From: Phyto melanocephala
Lineage: Eukaryota > Arthropoda > Insecta > Diptera > Rhinophoridae
Direction of reading: 5' to 3'
NCBI GenBank assembly: GCA_941918925.1
Contig: OW799234.1
Location: 123,589,395 to 123,653,394, forward strand
Length of the DNA stretch: 64,000 nucleotides
Shown in pieces: positions 5,810 through 51,262 of the stretch. Made by a program: the position numbers and the translations under genes. The notes beneath the pieces were generated by a model. It ran no database searches. It had not been told where the DNA came from and was given only the letters and a program-made list of their open reading frames with translations. Within the stretch, counting starts at the first letter, position 1; every line of letters starts with the position of its first letter.

Positions 5810-8245
5810 TACCCTAACTTCCCTAAAATCCTAAATATTCTCGCTGATATACATACATAAATATTTTCCCGCTTAACATTAATTTACAATTTTATTTCTG
5901 CTTAGGAAACATTTAAAATCAAATAAGTTGCCAGCCAGCTGTATGCACCTCAGGGAAGAGTTTGCTTTTATGGCGTGTTTTATTTTCGCCATTCGACTTA
6001 TTACTAATATTTATCCAAGTTATAAAATTTGTTATTTCGTCTATAAAATGATTTAATTTGTTTTGTTTTTTGTTATTGTAGTTGTTTTATTGTTGCTGTA
6101 ATTATGTTTTTTTTTATGTGTGTGTAGAGGGCTGGCGAAATTGCTGTTTTATTTCTCCGTATGTCTGCCGCTCTGTCTGAATTTTAATACATTTTTTATT
6201 TTACTTTGTGGACATTGTGTACATGCTCTGTACTTTTATGCTTTTCAATTAAGGCGTTAAATGTACAGAAAATAAATTAATGATTTAAAGTATATTTGAG
6301 TTGAGAGAAAGAATTCTGCAAGTAAAAATAAAATCAGACAAACTTAGAGGTTAATAAGCGTAAAATTGGTAATTTAGTTTAAGGGTTAAGGATCTTTTTA
6401 TCCACACTGTGCTCTTTTTAGTAAGACTCAATTAACTTTCATTTTATCATCTTTTAAAAGTTAAATTAACGTATCATACCCTTCGCCCTTGCGACTATTT
6501 GACAGTGATTATAAATAAGTTTTTTATTCCGTATGTTAAGACGACTAAATGCACTATAAAATCGTGATTATTACAACTTACTGACACCCTTACGTTTTGT
6601 CCATCTATCAGCGGAAAAAAATTTTACGGTCAAACTGTTGCTTTAGAGTTTAAATAAATATCACCCTACACGAAAAAATATATCTAAGAACATTATTCTT
6701 TGATTAAGTTATATGACTGTGGTTAAAAGCAATAGGTTGGGTGTTTTTCTTTTCTTTTTTTATGGCGTAGAATACGTCTTACCTTACGGTATAGGGAGTC
6801 ATGTCGGATTGTTATTGTTGTAATCTTTATTTCATTGATTATGAGGAAACGGCGAGATAACTTTTTTTAAAAATTTTTTTGTAGGTAAATGAAGATGTTA
6901 TCTTTCGTTTGATATACATTTCATATTGGTTGATATCTTCCTAATATTTAAATTTCTCAAATGAAAATTGTTTAAACACATACACTCAAACATATGTGTG
7001 GTGTTTGGTTGATTGTTTGAGTTTGTATTATAAACACAAACTATGCTGCTGTTTCAGTGTGGACACAAACCTTCGGCTGTTGTTTTGATTGATGAAATAT
7101 TGAAATTTCGTATATTTACTTATGTATTTAAGTGAAACAATATGTTAAATGTGAATTTGAATTTAACATAGATATATAATTATAAAAAATATATGAAAAA
7201 ATTAATTCATTCATTTTTATGTTTAATAAAAGTGCTGCCAAGTAAGCAAAATAACAATACTGCTTGATGCTGTTTGACAGCAGTAACTATCAAATAAATA
7301 AATAAATTCATTTGCTTATATTATTTATCATTTATTGTTATGTATGTTTTCTGTCTTATCGGATGGCGTATTCTACGTTAAACTTAATGCTGTTTTTTTT
7401 TGTTGTTAAATTTATATATTCAGACAGAGGATGAAGCGGATATACTTTATGGATATTTAGAAAAATTGTGATAAAGTATTCTCAGACAAGCGGTTAATAT
7501 TGCTAGTCTATGGCGACCTTATTGTTTTTTTGACTGCTTCTTTTTAATCTTTTCGCATCACAAACAACACAGTTAGGCAGCACATCTAAATAATTAAAAT
7601 TTTTTTTTATCAAAATGCGCTTATGCAAATATTTTGCGTTGTAATAAATAAATGACCGGCACAATGACTCTTTAAGATCATCTTTGAAACATTCGGTAAA
7701 ACACATTAACGTACATGTGAGTCAACGAATCGTCAAAGATAATCGCATAAATTTAGCGGAGACACCGAGTAAGTCAATTGTTTACCGATAACAAGAACAC
7801 ACGCATTTGCCGACACAAAATTTATGATTCGGGATTTGAGTCTGCAACCGTGAGGCATAAGACCCACTAAGGAGCTTAAAGTTAATGGATTAATGGGGAC
7901 GCTGCTTGTGCTTGTGTCCTAGGATGCCTTTCCAGTGTTTTTAATTTGTTTTTTTTTTTAAAACCCTAATACCTCTCAATGAACCGAGTTAGGTGCATTT
8001 GCCTCCCATGGTATAAAAGGCGTTTTTTTTTGCCCAAAATAGGATGATGCCAAATTGGGGCCAGAATTATGAACACTCTGTGCTGTTTTAAGAAAGGTAA
8101 AAACCGCTTTTGTATCGTAGATATATTTAATTATATATTTCTGCGTTTGTCATGCCTGACGTCACAAATAATTATATTTTTTTTTGCCACAACTGGAAAC
8201 TGGAAATGGCTTGCCTAACAAGAAAAAGTTGGGAATGTAGCAGTT
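5810..8245. other. unrecognised AT-rich sequence
   Basis: No gene recognised. A fragment ATACCCTTCGCCC near 6475 may be the end of an INE-1-like element. A short inverted pair, CGTAGAATACG near 6765 and CGTATTCTACG near 7369, encloses about 600 bp but has no other sign of a transposon. A minus-strand frame at 7503-7706 contains CVVCDAKRLKR, too little to assign. Confidence 0.4.
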
Positions 8246-8249
8246 GTTG

Positions 8250-8920
8250 TGCAGCTCATTTGTGTCCATCGTATTGATCTCTTACTGATACGTGTATCAG
8301 AATAGAAGTAGAAATAATATAATTAATTATTAGGGTTAGAAAACGATTAGGAGAGAAAGATCCACGGTCTCCAGGGAACCACCCCGAACGTCTTATTAAG
8401 ATTTCAATTTCGGCAAGGCTTATTGATGCCATCTTTGACAGGCTGAAGGCCACGAAAATATTCTTCGGGTATTATGTGACACAGTAATTGGTATAAGGTT
8501 TTCATCCTCCTCTTTATCTAAACAACTCTACAGATGTTATTTTAAGGTATTCCCAATCTCCTAGCAAAACTGCAGTGTTCAGTCAGCGTAGCCACAATAT
8601 CCTTCAGCCATTTTCTGTCAAAACCTAAAAGCCGTTTGGTAGGCTGAGGAGATCTAGTCCTGGCCATTTCATCCTCGCAATATTACACGCAGAGGCATTC
8701 ATCAGTTTTTTCTGTAACGATATGTGAAGATACATATCTTTAAGAATTTTGGCAAGCAGAAAGCTACATACTACAGTAGTGATCGGCAGATCGATCATTA
8801 AGTAATGCGACCCTCTTGGCGAGAACATCAGCTCTGCAGTTCGCATCACTGGTTCCGTGTCTGCGCAACCATACAAAAGTTATGTTGGAATGCATCGCAA
8901 TCTAAATTGAGGGAATTCCT
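8250..8920 (-). pseudogene. non-LTR retrotransposon 3' part (RNase H and C-terminal region), decayed
   Basis: Read on the minus strand in shifting frames, this contains the end of an RNase H domain (NCRADVLAKR, about 8812-8850), then a segment KRLLGFDRK..LKDIVATLTEHC..RRLGIP (about 8550-8640) that corresponds to the conserved ALTGHW/C-type block after RNase H in I-group LINEs, and finally a C-terminal block ending SLAEIEILIRRSGWFPGDRG (about 8365-8425). Frameshifts and stops separate all three, so it is dead. The layout matches the LINE fragments at 25560-26080 and 28236-28740, though it looks more diverged. Which clade (I, LOA or R1-like) cannot be settled from the 3' end alone. Confidence 0.75.
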
Positions 8921-26249: not shown

Positions 26250-26791
26250 TCACTGATATTTCAAATATTATTCAAGAAGATGCAGGTGATGTAAAATTTG
26301 TGGGATGTGCCTACAGGATGCTGAGACAGCACCACATATATAGTATACGATGTCCTGCACTGGAAATCAGAAGATTGTGGGTCTCAGACTAGCACACATT
26401 AAGTGTAGATGCTATGAGAGACCCCAGTCTGAAGAATATGTAAGCGATTACAAAGTCAGGTCAGCAGTCTGAAATCGCTCTCCAGTCTAGAGCAAATAAT
26501 GGTTTTAGCTTAGGGCCTGAAATCACTGAGGAAAACAATATTTTACTGCCAAATCTAGCAAACAGGATTGCCAACTAAATTTTGAACTCGAACTAGAGAT
26601 CCATAAGGAGTTACATTGAGGGGACTGGGTTCTTGGACTAGTCCGTTATTTATGGGAAATTATGACTAGGTTTTTTGTTTGGGAATTCCGTTTCCCTCCT
26701 GGAGCGCACAACATGTTAACTGGGCATAAGTGTATACCTGTCATAGGTTTGGGCTTTTAATTCACCTCCTTTTCAACCTAACCTAACCTAA
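26250..26791 (+). pseudogene. LINE 3' end (family L1), decayed coding part with well-kept 3' UTR
   Basis: The last 30 codons can be traced as ..NSN/TRTRDP..SYIEGTG.. against the intact copy ending at 29441. From GATCCATAAGGAGTTACATT (about 26603) to the 3' end the DNA is nearly identical to that copy, through GTGTATACCTGTCAT to the terminal CAACCTAACCTAACCTAAG. Upstream, 26290-26360 is a degenerate CRACEEED..CHCPA block. No polyA tail; the element ends in CCTAA repeats instead. Confidence 0.8.
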
Positions 26792-28235
26792 GTTTTAAAT
26801 TTCTGGAAATAGTTCTGCCTCTAAAAATTTTGTTTAGGAGTGCTGTTATAACTCCATCAATATGGGCAGTAGCTCCATCCAGCTGAAACTACATACAAGA
26901 TATCTTTTCAAGAGTAAGACCTTACAATTTTTCTATCATAAATCAATACGCTTAAAGCACTTTTGTCTTCATTTGAAGAATTTAGTCCTAATGATATATT
27001 CATTTTTAAAATAATTGATGGCTGATTTAAATAATAAAATTCTTTTATTCTGATTCTTTGTGCAGTTGTCAGTCTCTTTATTTTTTATTCTCCAGGTGTT
27101 GTTATATAAAATGATATGAAAAAGTTATTACATTTTTAAGCGCCATGGTGAGCACACCCTGTACAACAGATTTTTTACTGACAAGTTGTCTTTGTACACC
27201 TTAATCAACTATGATTTTCTTCAAGTTAAGAAAAGAAAGAATTTTGTGTTTTTAAGTAAATCACATCTCTTTGGAGAGATTTGTTTCTATAAATTTAAAA
27301 ACTATTAAAATATATTTTACCATTAAACAGAATTTATTGGACATTTAATAGCAATCTTACTGGATTTCGTTTTGCTTTTTTTTTTTCTTCAAAACATGTT
27401 TTTCGAAAATAATGCGACACGCTGTTTAGCTTAACGATTATAGAATATTTATGTAATGTCTCATATTTTTACTGCAGACTAATGGCCGCTAATCCAATTA
27501 CTTGCTGTTGTGTACGTGCATGTCATTTTAAATACTGACAAATTGACATTAAAAATATCTATTTTATATGTGTGTAAGTTTTTAAGTACTTAACTTCTAA
27601 TTGACATTTATACTAACAATAAGGCAAACAGCTTTCAAATACGAATGTATTTTTATTTCATCCGTTTAGCAGAGATGTCTGCGAAGCCTTTGTTTAATTT
27701 GTTACGCTCTTTAGAGCTGTGAGGAAGGTTTGCCATAAATTACGAAAGTCTTAAATGTACATTTGTTTGGATGTTTGTCAGCATGCTAAAATAATGCCTC
27801 ATTATTTAAATCACACAGACAACAGTTTACAGATACAGATGAATCTTGTAAAATTTTAAAATTGTCTTCCTTCACATATAAATGTGAGATAATTTCAATA
27901 CAGTGAACTGATTGAAAATAGTTTAAAACTCCTCGTGAAAAGAAACTTGTTATAAGCGTTTAAGTCATTTATCTTAATAATACATGAATAAGCAAAATGT
28001 TCTACCCCATCATAGGGACATTCGCAGAAATTAGGTCATAAGGTACAAGCGTTTTACCACGAAGCTCCCAATTACTTATTTTTTTCTTTAATTGGCTTTG
28101 ACAATTATACTTGTCGCATGTGATTACAGAAAACTACCGATTATAACTTGGGCTGATTTATGGCAAATAATGTAATTGGGTGATTATACTTTAAATCAAG
28201 GCATCAAATTGCTAATATCGTGCCCTGCGGACTTA
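26792..28235. other. unrecognised AT-rich sequence
   Basis: Nothing recognised on either strand. Confidence 0.4.
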
Positions 28236-28740
28236 ATTAAAACCGATGCAAGGCGTACATTACAACTTACTAGTCGAAGTCGGAGCGACATATAGATATT
28301 GCTGGCGGTATTGACGGGTCACTGGATGTTAGGCAAACATGCAAGTCGACTCGGACTTCCATCGAACGACCATTGTCGCAGCTGTCGGGATAGAGAGAAG
28401 GAGGAATCGGTTTTCCACCTTCTCTGCGAATGTCCTGCACTGACGGCTGAAAGACACAGTTTCTGGATGGCCTCTCTGCGATATCTGAAGTTAGACTGAA
28501 TTATCTACTGAGATTCCTCACGGCCACGGGGTGGATCTATTACCTTAACTACTCTTGGATTTATTCTGAGATACATTGGAGCCGACTTGACTGTTTGCGT
28601 GCAGCGAACTACCACGGTAACCAACCAACCAACCATAACCTGGCACTAAAGATATGCCCAGAAACGTTAGCACAATCGGTAAAGATTTAATTCTTAAAAA
28701 ACTATAGCCTAAAGTTAAATATAAAAGACACAAATTCATA
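28236..28740 (+). pseudogene. LINE C-terminal region (family L2)
   Basis: From 28236 the plus frame reads LIKTDARRTLQLTSRSRSDI, one TAG (28293-28295), then continues in frame as LLAVLTGHWMLGKHASRLGL and PSNDHCRSCRDREKEESVFH, LLCECPALTAERH to a TGA near 28500. The CxxC...HxLCxCPAL spacing is the knuckle found after RNase H in I-group LINEs. After a frameshift, LRFLTATGWIYYL gives the usual C-terminal aromatic block. The end is probably the CCAACCAACCAACCATAACC stretch near 28620-28645. RT and RNase H are absent (5' truncation). Confidence 0.82.
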
Positions 28741-28895: not shown

Positions 28896-29441
28896 TTGCG
28901 GAGTTTCGCGCACAAAAAGCATCTTCTTAAGACTTGTCACGGGCTGATCGGAAACGAGAAAGCCGACAAATTATCCAAAATGGGAGCTCTTTTGAGTACT
29001 ATAACTTTGGAGAACGCCAAACCCCTTAAACGATTTAAGGATGAACTTAAACGTTGGGCAATGGAAGAACATGTCAGAAAATGGCAAAGCACTGATGTCG
29101 GTAAGGTGACAAGAACACTCTGGGGTGACCCAAATCTTGGGAAGTCAAAGGAGATTTTGAGACTAAGTAGACCTACACTTAGGAAATTAACCGGTGTAAT
29201 TACAGGTCATACGGAGTTGAGAACTCATTTAGCACGCATGGGATTATCTGAGGAGACGACATGTAGAGCTTGTGAGGAAGAGGATGAGACCCTGGTACAC
29301 TACCTCTGTCATTGTCCTGCGTTTGGGCATATTAGGCGCGAAAATTTTACAGTAGATAATATGCCGAACTTGGAATACCTGGGGAACTCGAACTGGAGAT
29401 CCATAAGGCGTTACATTGAGGGGACTGGTTTCTTGGACTAG
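28896..29441 (+). CDS. LINE ORF2 C-terminus, 181 open codons (family L1)
   Basis: Uninterrupted frame covering the end of an RNase H domain and the C-terminal knuckle of a non-LTR retrotransposon. GLIGNEKADKLSKMG (residues about 16-30) is the RNase H C-terminal motif. DPNLGKSKEILRLSR and LTGVITGHTELRTHLARMGL follow. Then comes the knuckle CRACEEEDETLVHYLCHCPAF (given here in shortened spacing: C-x2-C, H, C-x-C) and the C-terminal YIEGTGFLD. The first codons (MRSFAHKK) lie outside recognisable homology, so the copy is 5' truncated near 28920 and the ATG is not a real start. The lack of stops over 170 codons means a recent insertion. Known LINEs of this type carry endonuclease, RT and RNase H; only the tail is here. 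Confidence 0.85.
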   Translation: MRSFAHKKHLLKTCHGLIGNEKADKLSKMGALLSTITLENAKPLKRFKDELKRWAMEEHVRKWQSTDVGKVTRTLWGDPNLGKSKEILRLSRPTLRKLTGVITGHTELRTHLARMGLSEETTCRACEEEDETLVHYLCHCPAFGHIRRENFTVDNMPNLEYLGNSNWRSIRRYIEGTGFLD

Positions 29442-29591
29442 TCCGTTATTTATGGGAAATTATGTTTATGGTTTTTTGTTTGGGAATTCCGTTTTCCACA
29501 TGGAGCGCACAACATGCCAACTGGGCATAGGTGTATACCTGTCATGGGTTTGGGCTTTTATACCCCTCCTTTTCAACCTAACCTAACCTAA
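29442..29591 (+). other. LINE family L1 3' UTR and terminal repeats
   Basis: Follows the stop codon directly. Contains CTGGGCATAGGTGTATACCT, in which ATAGGT-GTAT-ACCTGT can fold as a hairpin, and ends with CAACCTAACCTAACCTAAG instead of polyA. The same 3' UTR ends the copies at 26791, 41551 and 42915. The hairpin segment recurs in the SINE at 51071-51262. Confidence 0.85.
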
Positions 29592-30677
29592 GACTTGAAA
29601 ACGACAATTCTAATCGCATAGTCCTTTGTAATCGGAGTTAGGCTGAGGTTCCCTATAGAACTATACCTAATTTTTGCTTTAGTGTGATTCCTATTCTATC
29701 AAGATCTGAGTCTCTCTAAACTCTTTAAATTCATGGTTTAGAATTCCGCTATGCCCTATAAGTAAAGATGCATTCGAAATAATCATGCCATGCAGCCCCA
29801 CGCCATTCCTTACTCGACTCCTGCGCTCCATCGGCATCTGAGGTTCGGTGTTATTAACAACTCTACACACTCCGCCAAGGTAACATTTCCAGATGGAATA
29901 ATATCCTTTTTTTCTTAAACATTTGTTGTTGATGGAACGACCAACAAACCTTATTAATCGTTATGAAAAAAAAGAGCGAAAATATAATTTTTTAAGCAGA
30001 ATATACCTTAAGTATGTGTCAATATAGAAGCAGTTGCAATTAAATAATAGATTTTTTTACATCTTATATTTTTCACTTAATCAAGGGTGTCTTAAAATGC
30101 ATAGATTTTAATTTGTTATTTTTTTTTTTGAACAAAATATATCAACCCTTTAAAGGATGATATGATATTGACAAATTATGGCTGCATTAAATTTAGTTTT
30201 TATATTTATTAAAAAAAAAAGAAAGCCGAATAGCCGTTACCATTTTTTTAGGACTGATTTTCAGACGAAATTTATCATGAGCATCAAGGACGATTTGAAT
30301 CTGTGCGAACCCGTAAATAACTATGATTCGGCTTCTGAAACACTAATAAACCACAAACCATTTTTCATTAAAAAAAACTCAAAATCATTGCATGGTCTAT
30401 AAATTCTAGAGCACCACTGCTGGAAGCAACTCAAAGTATCCATTACTAAATTTTTGTTGATAAATTAGGATGCGTTTTTAAGTCATGGGCCGTCCAGATT
30501 AGTTACTTATAAATTTCTGAAAGCCAATTAATGAAATGTTTGACAAGAGTGCCGGAATTTCAGAACAGAAGGATAAAAAATTGTATTTACATCAGCCGAA
30601 ATAGACTTTAGCAATGGTGGGCAGTTCCATTAAATTAATATCACATTAAAAAAATTAATTAAATTTAATTAATTATT
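29592..30677. other. mostly unrecognised; one copy of the 62.7-kb repeat
   Basis: At about 29742-29855, GAATTCCGCTATGCCC..ATGCAGCCCC..CGACTCCTGCGCTCCATCGG matches the 123-bp units at 62770-63050. The rest holds no recognised gene; a 74-codon frame at 30178-30402 has no recognisable feature. Confidence 0.5.
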
Positions 30678-31246
30678 TCATTGTAAAAACAAAGCAAAAA
30701 TATCGTTCCATTTGCGAGCTACGTTGTATTTTACAGCTCTTATCAAGCGCGGGGAAAAAAAGGGATAAACAATCACTATTGGATTATCATTCGCCCAAAA
30801 GTGGTAATTCTGCTTATTGATGAATCCACTGAGGTGAAAATGTGCCTCATCACTGAAGATGATTTTCTTCAAAAATTGATCATCCACGGTTGCCATTCTG
30901 ACCATTGACGACGTTTGAAATGGTCAAGAGGTTTAAGTTCTTGAGTCAATTGCATTTGTTGGGTACGACGATGAGTTGAGGTGGACGGCTCTTTAGCCAC
31001 ACTATCGCGAACAGCAGCAATATTTTCTGCAGAACGAGCTGTACGAGCATGAACTTGTGTTTTCAAATTTCCTATAGACCCGGTTTGCTCAAATTTTTCC
31101 ACGAGTTTTCCGATTGTACGCATATTTAGACGATTAAATTGACCGAAAAAATTACAAAGTGCACCATATGCATTTTGATTTGAACGCCGATTTTTATAAT
31201 AAGCCTGAATAACTTTGACGCGTTGCTCGATTGTGTATCTTTCCAT
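30678..31246 (-). pseudogene. Tc1/mariner transposase gene, deleted and frameshifted
   Basis: Two minus-strand frames make one broken transposase. The first (31246 to 30869) starts MERYTIEQRVKVIQAYYKNR, the helix-turn-helix N-terminus of the insect Tc1/mariner group with a DUF4817-type domain, and includes TIGKLVEKFEQTGS and ARSAENIAAVRDSV. A deletion removes the linker before LTQELKPLDHFKRRQWSEW. A frameshift then leads to the second frame (30905 to 30678) with the first catalytic aspartate, KIIFSDEAHFHLSGFINKQN, after which homology ends and the QDGA segment with the second aspartate is gone. The ATG at 31246 is the natural start. It cannot make an active enzyme. The downstream end at 30600-30680 is AT-rich and its inverted repeat was not identified. 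Confidence 0.88.
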
Positions 31247-31315
31247 GGTTACAATTGATTAGTCTGAAATTGAGAAATGTCAAATATAATGCAGAAAAAA
31301 ACATGACGTTTAGGT

Positions 31316-38276: not shown

Positions 38277-39180
38277 GGGTGATTCAAGTAGAGATACTTT
38301 TTTCAATAGTTTTTTTTTAACAAATCACGTGTGAGCTGTGTCATGCTGTCATGTTGTTTTTGTTCAGTATTGTTTGGCATTTCCTAATGGAAAGACTTAC
38401 GCCTAAACAAAGTTTATAAATCGTTCAACTTTATTACGAAAATTCACGTTCTGTGAGGAATGTGTTTCGTGCACTTTGGTCAACATAATCGGCCTACTGA
38501 GCGTACTATTCGCAACACCATCACCCATTTTTCAATCCAGCATTCATTATTGGATAATATTCGACCGAATAGACTACGTCCAGCACGCTGTGAAGAAAAT
38601 ATCGCGGCCGTAGCTGAAAGTATACACGAAGACCGTGGAGAGTCGATTCGGCTCCGTTCGCAGCAACTCGAACTGACGTATGGAACGACTAGGCGCATTT
38701 TACGTCAATATCTTAAATTGAACGACATTTGGTATCAGCAAGACGGAGCCACTTCACACACATCGCATCAATCAATGGATTTATTGGGAGAACACTTTGG
38801 TGAGCGCATAATTTCACGTTTCGGGCCGGTCGATTGGCCACCAAGAATGTGTGATATCACACAATTAGACTTTTTCCTGTGGGTATATGTAAAGTCTAAA
38901 GTTTAAGCTGGCAAAACCGCTTCGATTCAGGCTTTGGAGGAACACATCACACGTGTCATTCGCCAGTTACCAGTAGTAATGCTCGAACGAGTCATCAAAA
39001 ATTGTACTCAACGGATGGACCATCTGCGACGTAGCAAGAGCCAACATTTGATAGACATAATATTCAAAAAATAAATGCCAAAGAATGTTCTTTCAAATGA
39101 TAATAAACATTCCACATTAAATTTGAACTTTCTGGGTTTTTTTCTTTAAAAACAGAAGGGTTGAGGTTCCCTGGATCACG
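38277..39180 (+). mobile_element. Tc1/mariner element, internally deleted transposase
   Basis: ATGGAAAGACTTACGCC near 38385 begins a transposase (MERLTPKQ, a stop, IVQLYYENSRSVRNVFRALW). After a frameshift the frame 38460-38906 runs through TERTIRNTITHF, LLDNIRPNRLRPARCEENIA, AVAESIHEDRGESIRLRSQQ and LELTYGTTRRILRQYL. It then jumps by deletion to IWYQQDGATSHTSHQSMDLL, SRFGPVDWPPRMCDITQLDF and FLWVYVKSKV-stop. After the stop the same frame goes on (TASIQALEEHITRVIRQLP to IDIIFKK). The deletion removes the first catalytic aspartate region. Ends GGGTGATTCAAG (38277) and, inverted, CGTGATCCAGGG (39180) are probably worn terminal repeats. It belongs to the same large group as the copy at 30678-31246 but to a different lineage. 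Confidence 0.87.
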
Positions 39181-40857: not shown

Positions 40858-41551
40858 ATCGAGATACCTCGCAAATAGATAACCACCATACAGAGTCTAC
40901 TGAGAATTCTGTCGAACGAGGGCTTCAAACCCATCTGTAACGCAGTTGATGTTAAGATACTGATCTTGATAATTTATCCAGGAGACCTACAGAGGCTACG
41001 AATATGTCTCATAATAAGGCAAAAGAACATGGACTTAACGTCAACCTGCGGAATATGGACATCTGCACGTTTACGAGAAAGAGTGCTTTACTTTCCTGTG
41101 TTTCGAAATAAGACAGACATTTGAGTAGTACTTAATGGAGGCAACCATTGTACCAGTGTAATTACAGGTCATACGGAGTTGAGAACTCATTTAGCTCGCA
41201 TGAGATTATCTAAGGAGACGACATGTAGAGCAAGCGAGGAAGAGGATGAGACTTTGGTACACTACCTCTGTCATTGTCCTGCGTTTGGGCAGATTAGGCG
41301 CGAGAATTTTACAGTGGATACTATGCCGAACTTGGAATACCTGGGGAACTCGAACTGGAGATCCATAAGGAGTTACATTGAGGGGACTGGGTTCTTGGAC
41401 TAGTCCGTTATTTATGGGAAATTATGTTTATGGTTTTTGTTTGGGAATTCCGTTTTCCACATGGAGCGCACAACATGCCAACTGGGCATAAGTGTATACC
41501 TGTCATGGGTTTGGGCCTTTAATGCGCCTCCTTTTCAACCTATCCTAAACT
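40858..41551 (+). pseudogene. LINE family L1 copy, RT fragment joined to 3' end
   Basis: The first part (40870-41150) holds degenerate reverse transcriptase: EHGLNVNLRNMDICTFTRKS (about 41029-41088) corresponds to the motif where hydrophilic N-P-x-K-T-E..FTRK normally stands. An internal deletion then joins it to GVITGHTELRTHLARM-type sequence at about 41155. From there the frame 41179-41403 is open and about 95% identical by eye to the tail of the frame ending at 29441 (CRASEEEDETLVHYLCHC, changed C to S in the knuckle, then NLEYLGNSNWRSIRSYIEG and FLD). The 3' UTR ends CAACCTATCCTAAAC. Confidence 0.82.
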
Positions 41552-42915
41552 TACGGAGGCTATCCTGGAGAGTAAAATGTGAGTAGAGTGGAGAAAGCTC
41601 AAAGTATATGGGCTATTTGTAAAAGAGCGATAGGCCCAAAATGTAGCGTAAGCTCAAGGATGACATTCTGACTACAAACAAGCATAATACGACCGATCCT
41701 AACGTATTCCTCCATAATGTGGTAGATATTTTTAAAGAGAAACTTCAATAGAGAACCTCCTTAAAATATCGAAAGGCAGTGCTGTATTGGTATATGAGGT
41801 AACATATTCTGTCGAATATAAGTAAAATATTAAGCAGCTCTGGCTGCTTCCGGATTAGTGGCAATGGGTGAATGACTGGTGCGAGCCCATCAACTATATA
41901 CCAAAAAAACATTGATATCTTATCTATAAAGTATCACAGATTTAACTTATGACAACAAAATATGATAGCGTTGGCTGCATTGCTTAAGTACCAAAGAAAG
42001 AATAAGTTGTTAGGGCAAGAAATACCTTAAGCACCGATTTTTATATAGACAGTTCAAAGATGGATATTCCATCTATGAGATAAAAATACTATTTTCCAGG
42101 CCAAGGTTATGGTAATTACGGAAGGCATTAGATGAATGAAAGAGATTGACAACGAAACCCCGATTCGAATTTTGTTTGATTTGCGGACAGTAAATCTGTT
42201 ATCAAGACTCTAGTAAACGATAGAGTTGAATTTCGGAGTGAGATAAACTTGCTCGCAAATTGTGAAAATCTAGAGATAATATCGATACCAGGCCATCACA
42301 GCATAACTGGAAGGGGAAAAACGATAAATATAACCACACGAGGATAATTTTTTTTGTTCCATTTCTCCACCGCTTTCTGAGATGCAAAAATTAAGTTAAA
42401 GTTCGGTCGATTGAAGAACACGTCAGAAAGTTTTACGAACTGCTGTGGTTAAGGTTACGACCATACAACGGGATGACCCAAATCTTGAGAAATCAAAGAG
42501 AGATAACTGAGAAGTTAACACTTAATAGATTAACAAGTGTAGTAACAGGTCCTATGAAGCTGAGAACTTATCTAACTCCAGTGGGACTCGCGGACCATAC
42601 GACATATAGAGCATAAAACGAAGAGAATAAGATTTTTGACACTACCTTTGTCAGTGTCATGAGTTTGAACGTATTAGACATGTAAACTTAAGCATAGACA
42701 CTTTGCTGAATTTGGACTTCCTAAAGAATTCGAATTTTAAATCCCTAAAAAAACCTTGAGTGGGCTAGGATCTTGACTTAGTCGCAATATTAGATAAATT
42801 TGAAATTATGATTCCAATATAGAAAATTTTATTTTAAGAGAGTGCACAACATGACAATTTGGGCATACTCGTATACCTATAATGGGGTTTGGCCCTCTAA
42901 ATCAACCTAACCTAA
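41552..42915 (+). pseudogene. LINE family L1-related copy with RT thumb, RNase H and knuckle, decayed
   Basis: Starts without gap after the previous copy's 3' end. Readable blocks in order: EKAQSIWAICKRAIGPKC and TSIIRPILTYSSIMW (41590-41725, end of the RT region), YTDSSKMDI (about 42042), ADSKSVIKTLVNDRVEFRS (about 42184-42240) and IPGHHSITGRGK (about 42287-42322), the three parts of an RNase H domain. Then follow DDPNLEKSK (about 42470), a worn knuckle (HYLCQCHEFERIRHVNLSID) and NSNFKSLKKP. The 3' UTR has CGTATACCTATAATGGGG and ends CAACCTAACCTAAG. Many stops. It is older than its left neighbour. Confidence 0.8.
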
Positions 42916-44020: not shown

Positions 44021-44480
44021 CTTGCTAGGCTAGGTTAGGTCACAATAAATGGTCCTTTGATAGTCCACATACATAATAGGTATACTTGTACGACCGTTTG
44101 GCGTACTATTCGCTCTACTGGAAGAAGATTCCCCATTACAATCATAAGCTCAATTGAATGTAATTCCTAAGGGATCTCTAGTATAAATTTGTAATGCATT
44201 GCAGGTCCGGCATTGTGTCTAGGTGAAAGTTTTCTTATCTAAAACGCCCAAGCGCAGAATATTGACAGAGTTTATGTTTTAACGTATCGTCTACTAATCA
44301 CATGCTTGCTAATTGAGCTATGACCTATTACTTCTGACTGTTGGCCTTCTTAATTTCCTGGCTCGTTACTTTTCCGACACATATTTCCTGACACATACTT
44401 CAAATGTCCAAGTTAGAAATTCGTTTTTCTACCCCTGAAAAAGCTTAGCATCATCTTAAGTGATTGAATCTGAAAACAAT
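44021..44480 (-). pseudogene. LINE 3' end related to family L1, minus strand
   Basis: On the minus strand CALGRFR-stop-ENFHLDTMPDLQCITNLY-stop-RSLRNYIQ corresponds to CPAFGHIRRENFTVDNMPNL..NSNWRSIRRYIE of the intact copy. The 3' UTR follows with GTCGTACAAGTATACCTATTATG (compare GGGCATAGGTGTATACCTGTCATG) and ends GACCTAACCTAGCCTAGCAAG at 44021. Much more diverged than the other copies, so either an older insertion or a sister family with the same terminal repeat. Confidence 0.72.
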
Positions 44481-51070: not shown

Positions 51071-51262
51071 ATTGTGGTGACCCGGTGGACTAGCCTCTAG
51101 TGTGCTGTTCTGCTAGTTCGGGGGTTGCGGGTTCGATTCCCGCCAGAGACTCTGAACTGGTCTGATTCTCTTTCTGTTCTAGTCTATCTATTCAATTGGG
51201 CTGGGCATAGGTGTATACCTGTCGTGGATAGAAGTTTTATTACTTTCTACTTAACAAATAAA
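51071..51262 (+). mobile_element. tRNA-derived SINE with a LINE-like 3' tail
   Basis: The head has a polymerase III B box GGTTCGATTCC (51130-51140) inside a perfect tRNA T-arm (GCGGG-TTCGATT-CCCGC, 51127-51143). An A-box-like TAGCCTCTAGTGTGC lies about 40 bases upstream. The rest of the tRNA fold is poor, so it is a SINE and not a tRNA gene. The tail CTGGGCATAGGTGTATACCT GTCGTGG (51201-51227) matches the 3' UTR of LINE family L1 (29521-29547) at 26 of 27 positions, including a foldable ATAGGT-GTAT-ACCTGT. A short A-rich end follows. Retroposition by that LINE is the natural inference. It lies about 96 bp before the splice acceptor at 51358. Confidence 0.78.

What the first reader, a model, noticed from the sequence alone, without database searches (positions are those of the whole stretch)
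51071..51262. SINE that appears to borrow the 3' tail of the local LINE family
A tRNA-like head with intact B box is fused to a tail that matches the 3' UTR of LINE family L1 (29521-29547) at 26 of 27 bases, including a small hairpin ATAGGT-GTAT-ACCTGT. The coding and flanking parts do not match, so it is not a truncated LINE. Shared tails are the known way in which stringent-type LINE machineries are parasitised by SINEs (as in eel and reptile pairs). I know of no named pair of this kind in calyptrate flies.
Basis: partly seen in the sequence, partly recalled or inferred. Interest (0 to 1): 0.75.

Follow-up and report, generated by a model that had tools for sequence, protein, structure and literature searches.

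The report
SINE family with three alternative tails
A short parasitic DNA element in this genome exists in many copies that share one tRNA-like head but carry three alternative tails, two clearly and one probably taken from different larger jumping elements, which suggests that it can hitch-hike on more than one of them.

Summary
Confirmed and extended. The block at 51201-51227 matches the LINE 3'UTR at 29521-29547 at 26 of 27 bases; shuffles give no such match. The window's own 740-Mb assembly holds a large family with this head: 1373 first-look candidates, 40 of 40 scored match. Of 40 copies examined, 20 carry the LINE-A tail, 19 a second tail (B), 1 a third (C). Consensus tail A is 93 bp and runs into LINE-A's terminal (AACCT)n repeat. 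Tail B ends an independent LINE family, in 18 of 20 copies. Tail C lies beside the same head at 20 of 21 places; its only candidate donor is a decayed LINE-like stretch in this window (81% over 64 bp). Target-site duplications beat the 99th percentile of mismatched flanks in 23 of 40 copies. The window copy is an old, damaged A copy without one. The claimed hairpin is not conserved. Best reading: a SINE family that swapped tails and so uses several LINE machineries (mobilisation inferred). The kind is known; one head with several LINE tails is the unusual part.

The parts
51076..51197 (+). SINE head and body; 90% identical to positions 1-122 of the tail-A consensus
51086..51100 (+). A-box-like stretch TGGACTAGCCTCTAG, degenerate (3 mismatches to the recalled consensus)
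   Evidence: own reading; one search lists two-mismatch candidates only in other registers (51075, 51078)
51130..51140 (+). exact B box GGTTCGATTCC, in a T-arm-like stem-loop
51201..51227 (+). LINE-A-derived block, 26 of 27 identical to 29521-29547; the recognisable remainder of the 93-bp tail A
51228..51262 (+). 3' end of this copy: decayed or replaced; marginal similarity to LINE-A; no target duplication found
28937..29588 (+). LINE-A copy, 5' truncated, flanked by TAAGACTTG (28928-28936 and 29589-29597), ends in (AACCT)n; tail shared with the SINE family 29497-29588 (93.5%)
41152..41551 (+). LINE-A copy; shared tail 41458-41548, 92% to the SINE-A consensus
26584..26792 (+). LINE-A copy; shared tail 26700-26788, 91%
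42390..42915 (+). older LINE-A relative (67% in the blast match); shared tail part 42840-42893, 80%
8242..8560 (-). decayed LINE-like stretch (judged by eye, no Pfam test) whose 3' end resembles SINE tail C, 81% over 64 bp; only candidate donor of tail C

Best explanation
This is one damaged copy of a tRNA-derived SINE family of at least hundreds of copies. RNA polymerase III would transcribe it from the internal A/B boxes (inferred). Its 3' tail, copied from the 3'UTR end of LINE-A, would be recognised by the LINE-A reverse transcriptase, which copies the SINE RNA into nicked target DNA and leaves target duplications (tail identity and duplications shown, enzyme use inferred). The same head and body also end in the 3' tail of a second LINE family, LINE-B, and in a third tail of a probable LINE-C. 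The family therefore gained new tails at least twice, most likely by reverse-transcriptase template jumps in the pyrimidine-rich CTATTC tract before the tail (inferred). That tract resembles the LINE-B 3'UTR, so tail B was probably first (inferred, weak).
For: Family size: 1373 first-look candidates, 40 of 40 scored matched. Tail typing: A 20, B 19, C 1 of 40. Tail A: SINE-A consensus 123-215 is 88.5-93.8% identical to five LINE-A copies, each match starting at base 123; three more diverged matches start at 127, 129 and 137; the similarity runs to the (AACCT)n end. Tail B: SINE-B consensus 117-236 is 96.7% identical to LINE-B copy L070; 18 of 20 LINE-B copies hold the tail, one of them (L095) only 38 bp of it; LINE-B has 629 first-look candidates. 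Tail C: 20 of 21 places have the head or part of it; 166 first-look candidates. Duplications: 23 of 40 above the 99th percentile of 380 mismatched flank pairs. L012: a B copy sits inside a LINE-A copy with a 12-bp duplication. Heads of A and B copies do not sort by tail: 13 changes, shuffled mean 13.6.
Against: The window copy alone shows 27 bp of tail, no target duplication and a poor A box. 17 of 40 copies show no significant duplication: 11 of 20 A, 5 of 19 B, the one C. No tRNA was called at ARAGORN defaults, in the window or the consensus; relaxed settings gave a tRNA-Ser-like call, and Rfam matched only the T-arm, through tmRNA-type models. The hairpin is not conserved. LINE-B protein evidence is weak: no Pfam match for the two ORFs of L088, a below-cut-off zinc-knuckle match for another copy. 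The donor of tail C rests on one decayed stretch; a genome search with it found itself and one 75% fragment. The 40 copies were chosen by similarity to a query that held part of tail A, so A:B:C proportions are not the genome's. Two of 108 head columns differ between A and B at p<0.05, uncorrected.
Confidence: 0.86

Rival explanations
1. Chance or one-off junction: a tRNA pseudogene next to a LINE fragment, or a single reverse-transcriptase jump from LINE-A RNA to a tRNA.
For: The window copy has a 27-bp match only and no target duplication.
Against: The same head, body and tail A recur with other flanks in 19 further copies, 9 of them with significant duplications.
Confidence: 0.01
2. The tails were exchanged at the DNA level (recombination or gene conversion between SINE and LINE copies), not by template switching during reverse transcription.
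For: Heads do not sort by tail; pyrimidine-rich tracts could support DNA-level exchange.
Against: Where found, the duplications lie outside the whole composite element in copies of types A and B, so each of these types moves as a unit. This does not tell how the first copy of each type arose.
Confidence: 0.2
3. One LINE enzyme moves all three types; two of the tails are passive cargo.
For: All three tails end in short repeats of the AACCT or ACCT kind, so one relaxed enzyme could prime on any of them.
Against: Tails A and B reach the LINE's own 3' end and are shared over 93 and 120 bp, longer than priming on a repeat alone would need (inference).
Confidence: 0.15

Closest known systems
Gecko SINE with I-clade LINEs (MosquI / I-74_AAe), Aedes aegypti
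   Same: tRNA-derived dipteran SINE listed with LINE partners by its 3' end (table passage in PMC3747384). That I-clade LINEs carry RNase H, as LINE-A does, is recalled.
   Different: Listed with I-clade partners only; here at least two separate LINE tails on one head. Sequences were not compared, and the Gecko paper was not held.
HaSE1/HaSE2/HaSE3, Helicoverpa armigera (PMC3272025, abstract and passages seen)
   Same: HaSE1 and HaSE2 share head and central domain but differ in the 3' part; the HaSE1 tail is like that of the LINE HaRTE1.1
   Different: HaSE2's 3' part is like a mariner element, not a second LINE
UnaSINE/UnaL2 of eel (recalled; paper title seen in the reference list of PMC8010984)
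   Same: SINE tail shared with the 3' end of a LINE
   Different: There a tail stem-loop is required (recalled); the stem-loop named here is not conserved
Metulj, ZenoSINE and Flambeau SINEs of heliconiine butterflies (PMC6685494, passages seen)
   Same: Insect SINEs assigned to LINE partners by the 3' tail; Metulj tails vary
   Different: Separate SINE families with their own presumed partners; full-length tails of several LINEs on one head were not described in the passages seen

Membership tests
tRNA-derived SINE | dispersed multi-copy element of roughly 100-500 bp with a fixed 5' end | tested here: met
   40 scored places on five contigs; common 5' start in the 21 rows; consensus
tRNA-derived SINE | internal pol III promoter, B box | tested here: met
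   exact B box in this copy and in the consensus
tRNA-derived SINE | internal pol III promoter, A box | tested here: inconclusive
   degenerate in this copy; the consensus TGGACTAGTCA is no clear match either
tRNA-derived SINE | head related to a tRNA | tested here: inconclusive
   ARAGORN only at relaxed threshold, tRNA-Ser-like; Rfam T-arm only, via tmRNA models
tRNA-derived SINE | target-site duplications | tested here: met
   23 of 40 copies above the 99th percentile of mismatched pairs (A 9 of 20, B 14 of 19, C 0 of 1)
SINE with a LINE partner (shared tail) | SINE 3' end homologous to the LINE 3' end down to the terminal repeat | tested here: met
   tails A and B; tail C only against one decayed stretch and not to its end
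SINE with a LINE partner (shared tail) | mobilised by that LINE's reverse transcriptase | not testable with these tools
   needs a cell assay
stringent-type pair with 3' stem-loop | conserved stem-loop in the shared tail | tested here: not met
Other structures were not tested
RNase H-bearing LINE group (I/LOA-like; clade names recalled) | RNase H domain followed by a zinc knuckle in ORF2 of LINE-A | tested here: met
   L049: PF00075 E 3.6e-9, above cut-off; zf-RVT E 3.4e-4, below its cut-off. The clade was not tested

The most novel reading that the evidence does not exclude
A single SINE head has been served by three different LINE machineries within one genome, by repeatedly replacing its recognition tail at a pyrimidine-rich junction: a modular parasite that hedges across hosts and can outlive the extinction of any one LINE.
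Probability: 0.6. Interest if true: 0.68.

Novelty: new variant of a known kind. Interest (0 to 1): 0.6.

Why it matters
One survey gives SINEs under 1% of the TE content in most dipterans (PMC6327564, passage), and a genome paper reports none detected in the avian vampire fly (PMC9210292, passage). Such a set is a natural experiment on what a LINE enzyme recognises: head and copy ages are alike for A and B (mean head divergence 0.050 and 0.044), only the tail differs. It makes testable whether tail identity alone decides partner choice, and whether tail swapping keeps SINEs alive when a LINE dies.

Tried and rejected
Rejected: chance match; truncated LINE; the named hairpin as recognition element; separate heads for tails A and B (no clustering, no starred branch). 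Led nowhere: exact-pattern scans of viral contigs and genome contigs, 0 hits each; protein search with the LINE ORF, 87 candidates, none at E 0.001; PDB search, one hit at E 0.39; a LINE-C search from the window stretch. Genome-wide counts of head plus tail by pattern did not complete.

Rows and counts to know: the 40 copies are the best-scoring by similarity to the window copy, not a random sample. Of the 40 places, one is the window copy and the other 39 were fetched. Of the tail-B places, 20 of 40 were fetched; of tail C one of the 40 is L011 and 20 of the other 39 were fetched; of LINE-B one of the 40 is L070 and 19 of the other 39 were fetched. Two of the 18 tail-B places with a SINE head or body (L068, L080) and several of the tail-C places (for example L115, 45 bp) show only part of it. 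The sample was 20 stretches of 10 kb on C1-C3 only: 1 SINE (tail B), 3 LINE-A tails (one only 72% alike), no tail B without a head. One search used 12 of the 21 tail-C rows for its consensus. Gapped comparison of the window copy's last 48 bases with four LINE tails was not significant (p 0.21-0.92).

Full report
Observation. The 27-bp match is real: 51201-51227 against 29521-29547, 26 of 27, E 4.9e-7; the core 21-mer recurs at four places in the window at up to 3 mismatches and never in 100 shuffles. Upstream lies a G+C-rich stretch (0.605; 24 of 63,925 stretches at least as high) with the only B box found in the window at up to one mismatch. The A box is degenerate in this copy. The part between head and tail does not match the LINE. 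The hairpin is not a shared feature: three of four LINE copies in the window do not keep it, and the folded tails are no more stable than shuffles.

The LINE. Four copies of LINE-A or a relative with this tail lie in the window; a further coding fragment without the tail lies at 44157-44270 on the minus strand (68%). The copy at 28937-29588 ends in (AACCT)n and is flanked by TAAGACTTG on both sides. A copy sampled elsewhere (L049) encodes an RNase H domain (PF00075, E 3.6e-9) before a zinc knuckle that scores below its cut-off. From memory this fits the I/LOA group; the clade was not tested.

The family. The window lies in a 740-Mb assembly of 9 contigs, at C2:123589395-123653394. The element gave 1373 first-look candidates; 40 were scored and all 40 matched, mostly over query positions 6-127, the head and body. 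One of them is the window copy; I fetched the other 39 with flanks. Alignment of 20 of them with the window copy and tail typing of all 40 give 20 copies with tail A (the window included), 19 with tail B and 1 with tail C. One of the 19 (L012) also shows a tail-A match further downstream, because it is inserted in a LINE-A copy.

Tail A. The consensus of 20 copies matches LINE-A copies over positions 123-215. Of eight matches, five (29497 and 41458 in the window, L049, L052, L012) start exactly at 123; the others, more diverged, start at 127, 129 and 137. The similarity runs to the terminal AACCT repeat. By exact motifs, 15 of 20 copies still show that repeat and 10 of 20 the start of the tail. 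The window copy lost about 20 bp around the head-tail junction, and its last 35 or so bases are decayed or replaced. In the register set by the block, those bases resemble LINE-A only marginally (p by window position 0.025, 0.037 and 0.082 for the three close copies, 0.70 for the older one), and not at all in a gapped test. Its head is the most diverged of the 20 A heads, 0.087 against a mean of 0.050.

Tail B. A 66-base probe gave 1440 first-look candidates. Of 20 fetched, 18 carry SINE head or body, one is a microsatellite (L078) and one (L070) has LINE-like coding sequence upstream by eye (longer piece, ORFs). The 200 bases upstream in L070 gave 629 first-look candidates; of 20 such copies 18 hold tail B, one of them only 38 bp of it, and L096 and L099 do not. 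LINE-B is thus an independent repeat family ending in this tail. Its protein evidence is weak: a zinc-knuckle match below cut-off for another copy and no Pfam match for the two ORFs of L088. SINE-B positions 117-236 are 96.7% identical to L070. In 9 of the 18 LINE-B matches the similarity reaches back to SINE positions 90-101, into the pyrimidine-rich body that A and C copies also have. This suggests that B came first, but the tract is low in complexity.

Tail C. L011 carries a third tail; the probe gave 166 first-look candidates. Of 20 further places 19 carry the SINE head or part of it, and L122 does not. The only donor found is a decayed LINE-like stretch on the minus strand of this window, 81% over 64 bp; searching with it found itself and one 75% fragment. 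The donor of C is therefore probable, not shown.

Movement. Comparing 5' and 3' flanks, 23 of 40 copies exceed the 99th percentile of 380 mismatched flank pairs, where 0.4 would be expected: 9 of 20 A, 14 of 19 B and 0 of 1 C. The clearest is L012, a B copy inside LINE-A with TACTATGCCGAA on both sides. The window copy has no such duplication.

One head or several. A tree of 104 head columns needs 13 changes between A and B against a shuffled mean of 13.6, and has no starred branch; two of 108 columns differ between A and B at p<0.05 without correction. The two consensus heads differ at one base of the first 100 or so. In part of the C copies the head shows its own variants. Mean head divergence is 0.050 (A) and 0.044 (B), so the two were active at similar times.

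Mechanism. Shown: shared tails A and B, multi-copy families, target duplications. Inferred: pol III transcription, recognition of the tail by each LINE's enzyme, and tail gain by template switching at the CTATTC tract. Not excluded: DNA-level exchange, or one relaxed enzyme acting on AACCT/ACCT-type ends.

Known cases. Gecko and its I-clade LINEs in Aedes are listed in PMC3747384 (table passage); HaSE1 and HaSE2 share a head with different 3' parts (PMC3272025, abstract and passages). I saw no paper that describes this family or a SINE/LINE pair in calyptrate flies in the listings of searches of an open-access library; most listed papers were not opened, and Repbase and Dfam were not available. 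A paper on 600 kb of Calliphora vicina lists LINEs and unclassified repeats but no SINE class in its abstract and the passages and sections seen (PMC3630058); whether one of its unclassified repeats is this element was not tested. The host species here is not named by any tool.

Noticed in passing
L012 (G000:C2:19154155-19155171): A tail-B SINE is inserted into the coding part of a LINE-A copy with a 12-bp target duplication, giving a relative date for the two.
   Followed up: partly
window 28320-28640: Remnant of another LINE (zinc-knuckle-like reading on the + strand, by eye) just upstream of the LINE-A copy.
   Followed up: no
window 30869-31258 (-) and 38457-38906 (+): Remains that look like mariner-type transposase genes by eye; the first matches PF16087 (helix-turn-helix, E 1.5e-11), the second had no Pfam match.
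   Followed up: partly
tail-C copies L112, L117, L118, L120, L121, L125: Share head variants CAGCAG and GCCGGAG (five of the six also GATGG) that I did not see in the A and B rows printed: a C sub-lineage with its own head.
   Followed up: no
L078 (G000:C2:12641514-12641900): Tail B follows a long ATTCT microsatellite, perhaps grown from the pyrimidine-rich tract of the SINE body or LINE-B 3'UTR.
   Followed up: no
window 29506-29549 versus 42840-42893: The 3'UTR stretch around the SINE-shared block is among the best conserved parts between two LINE-A relatives that are 63% identical overall.
   Followed up: partly
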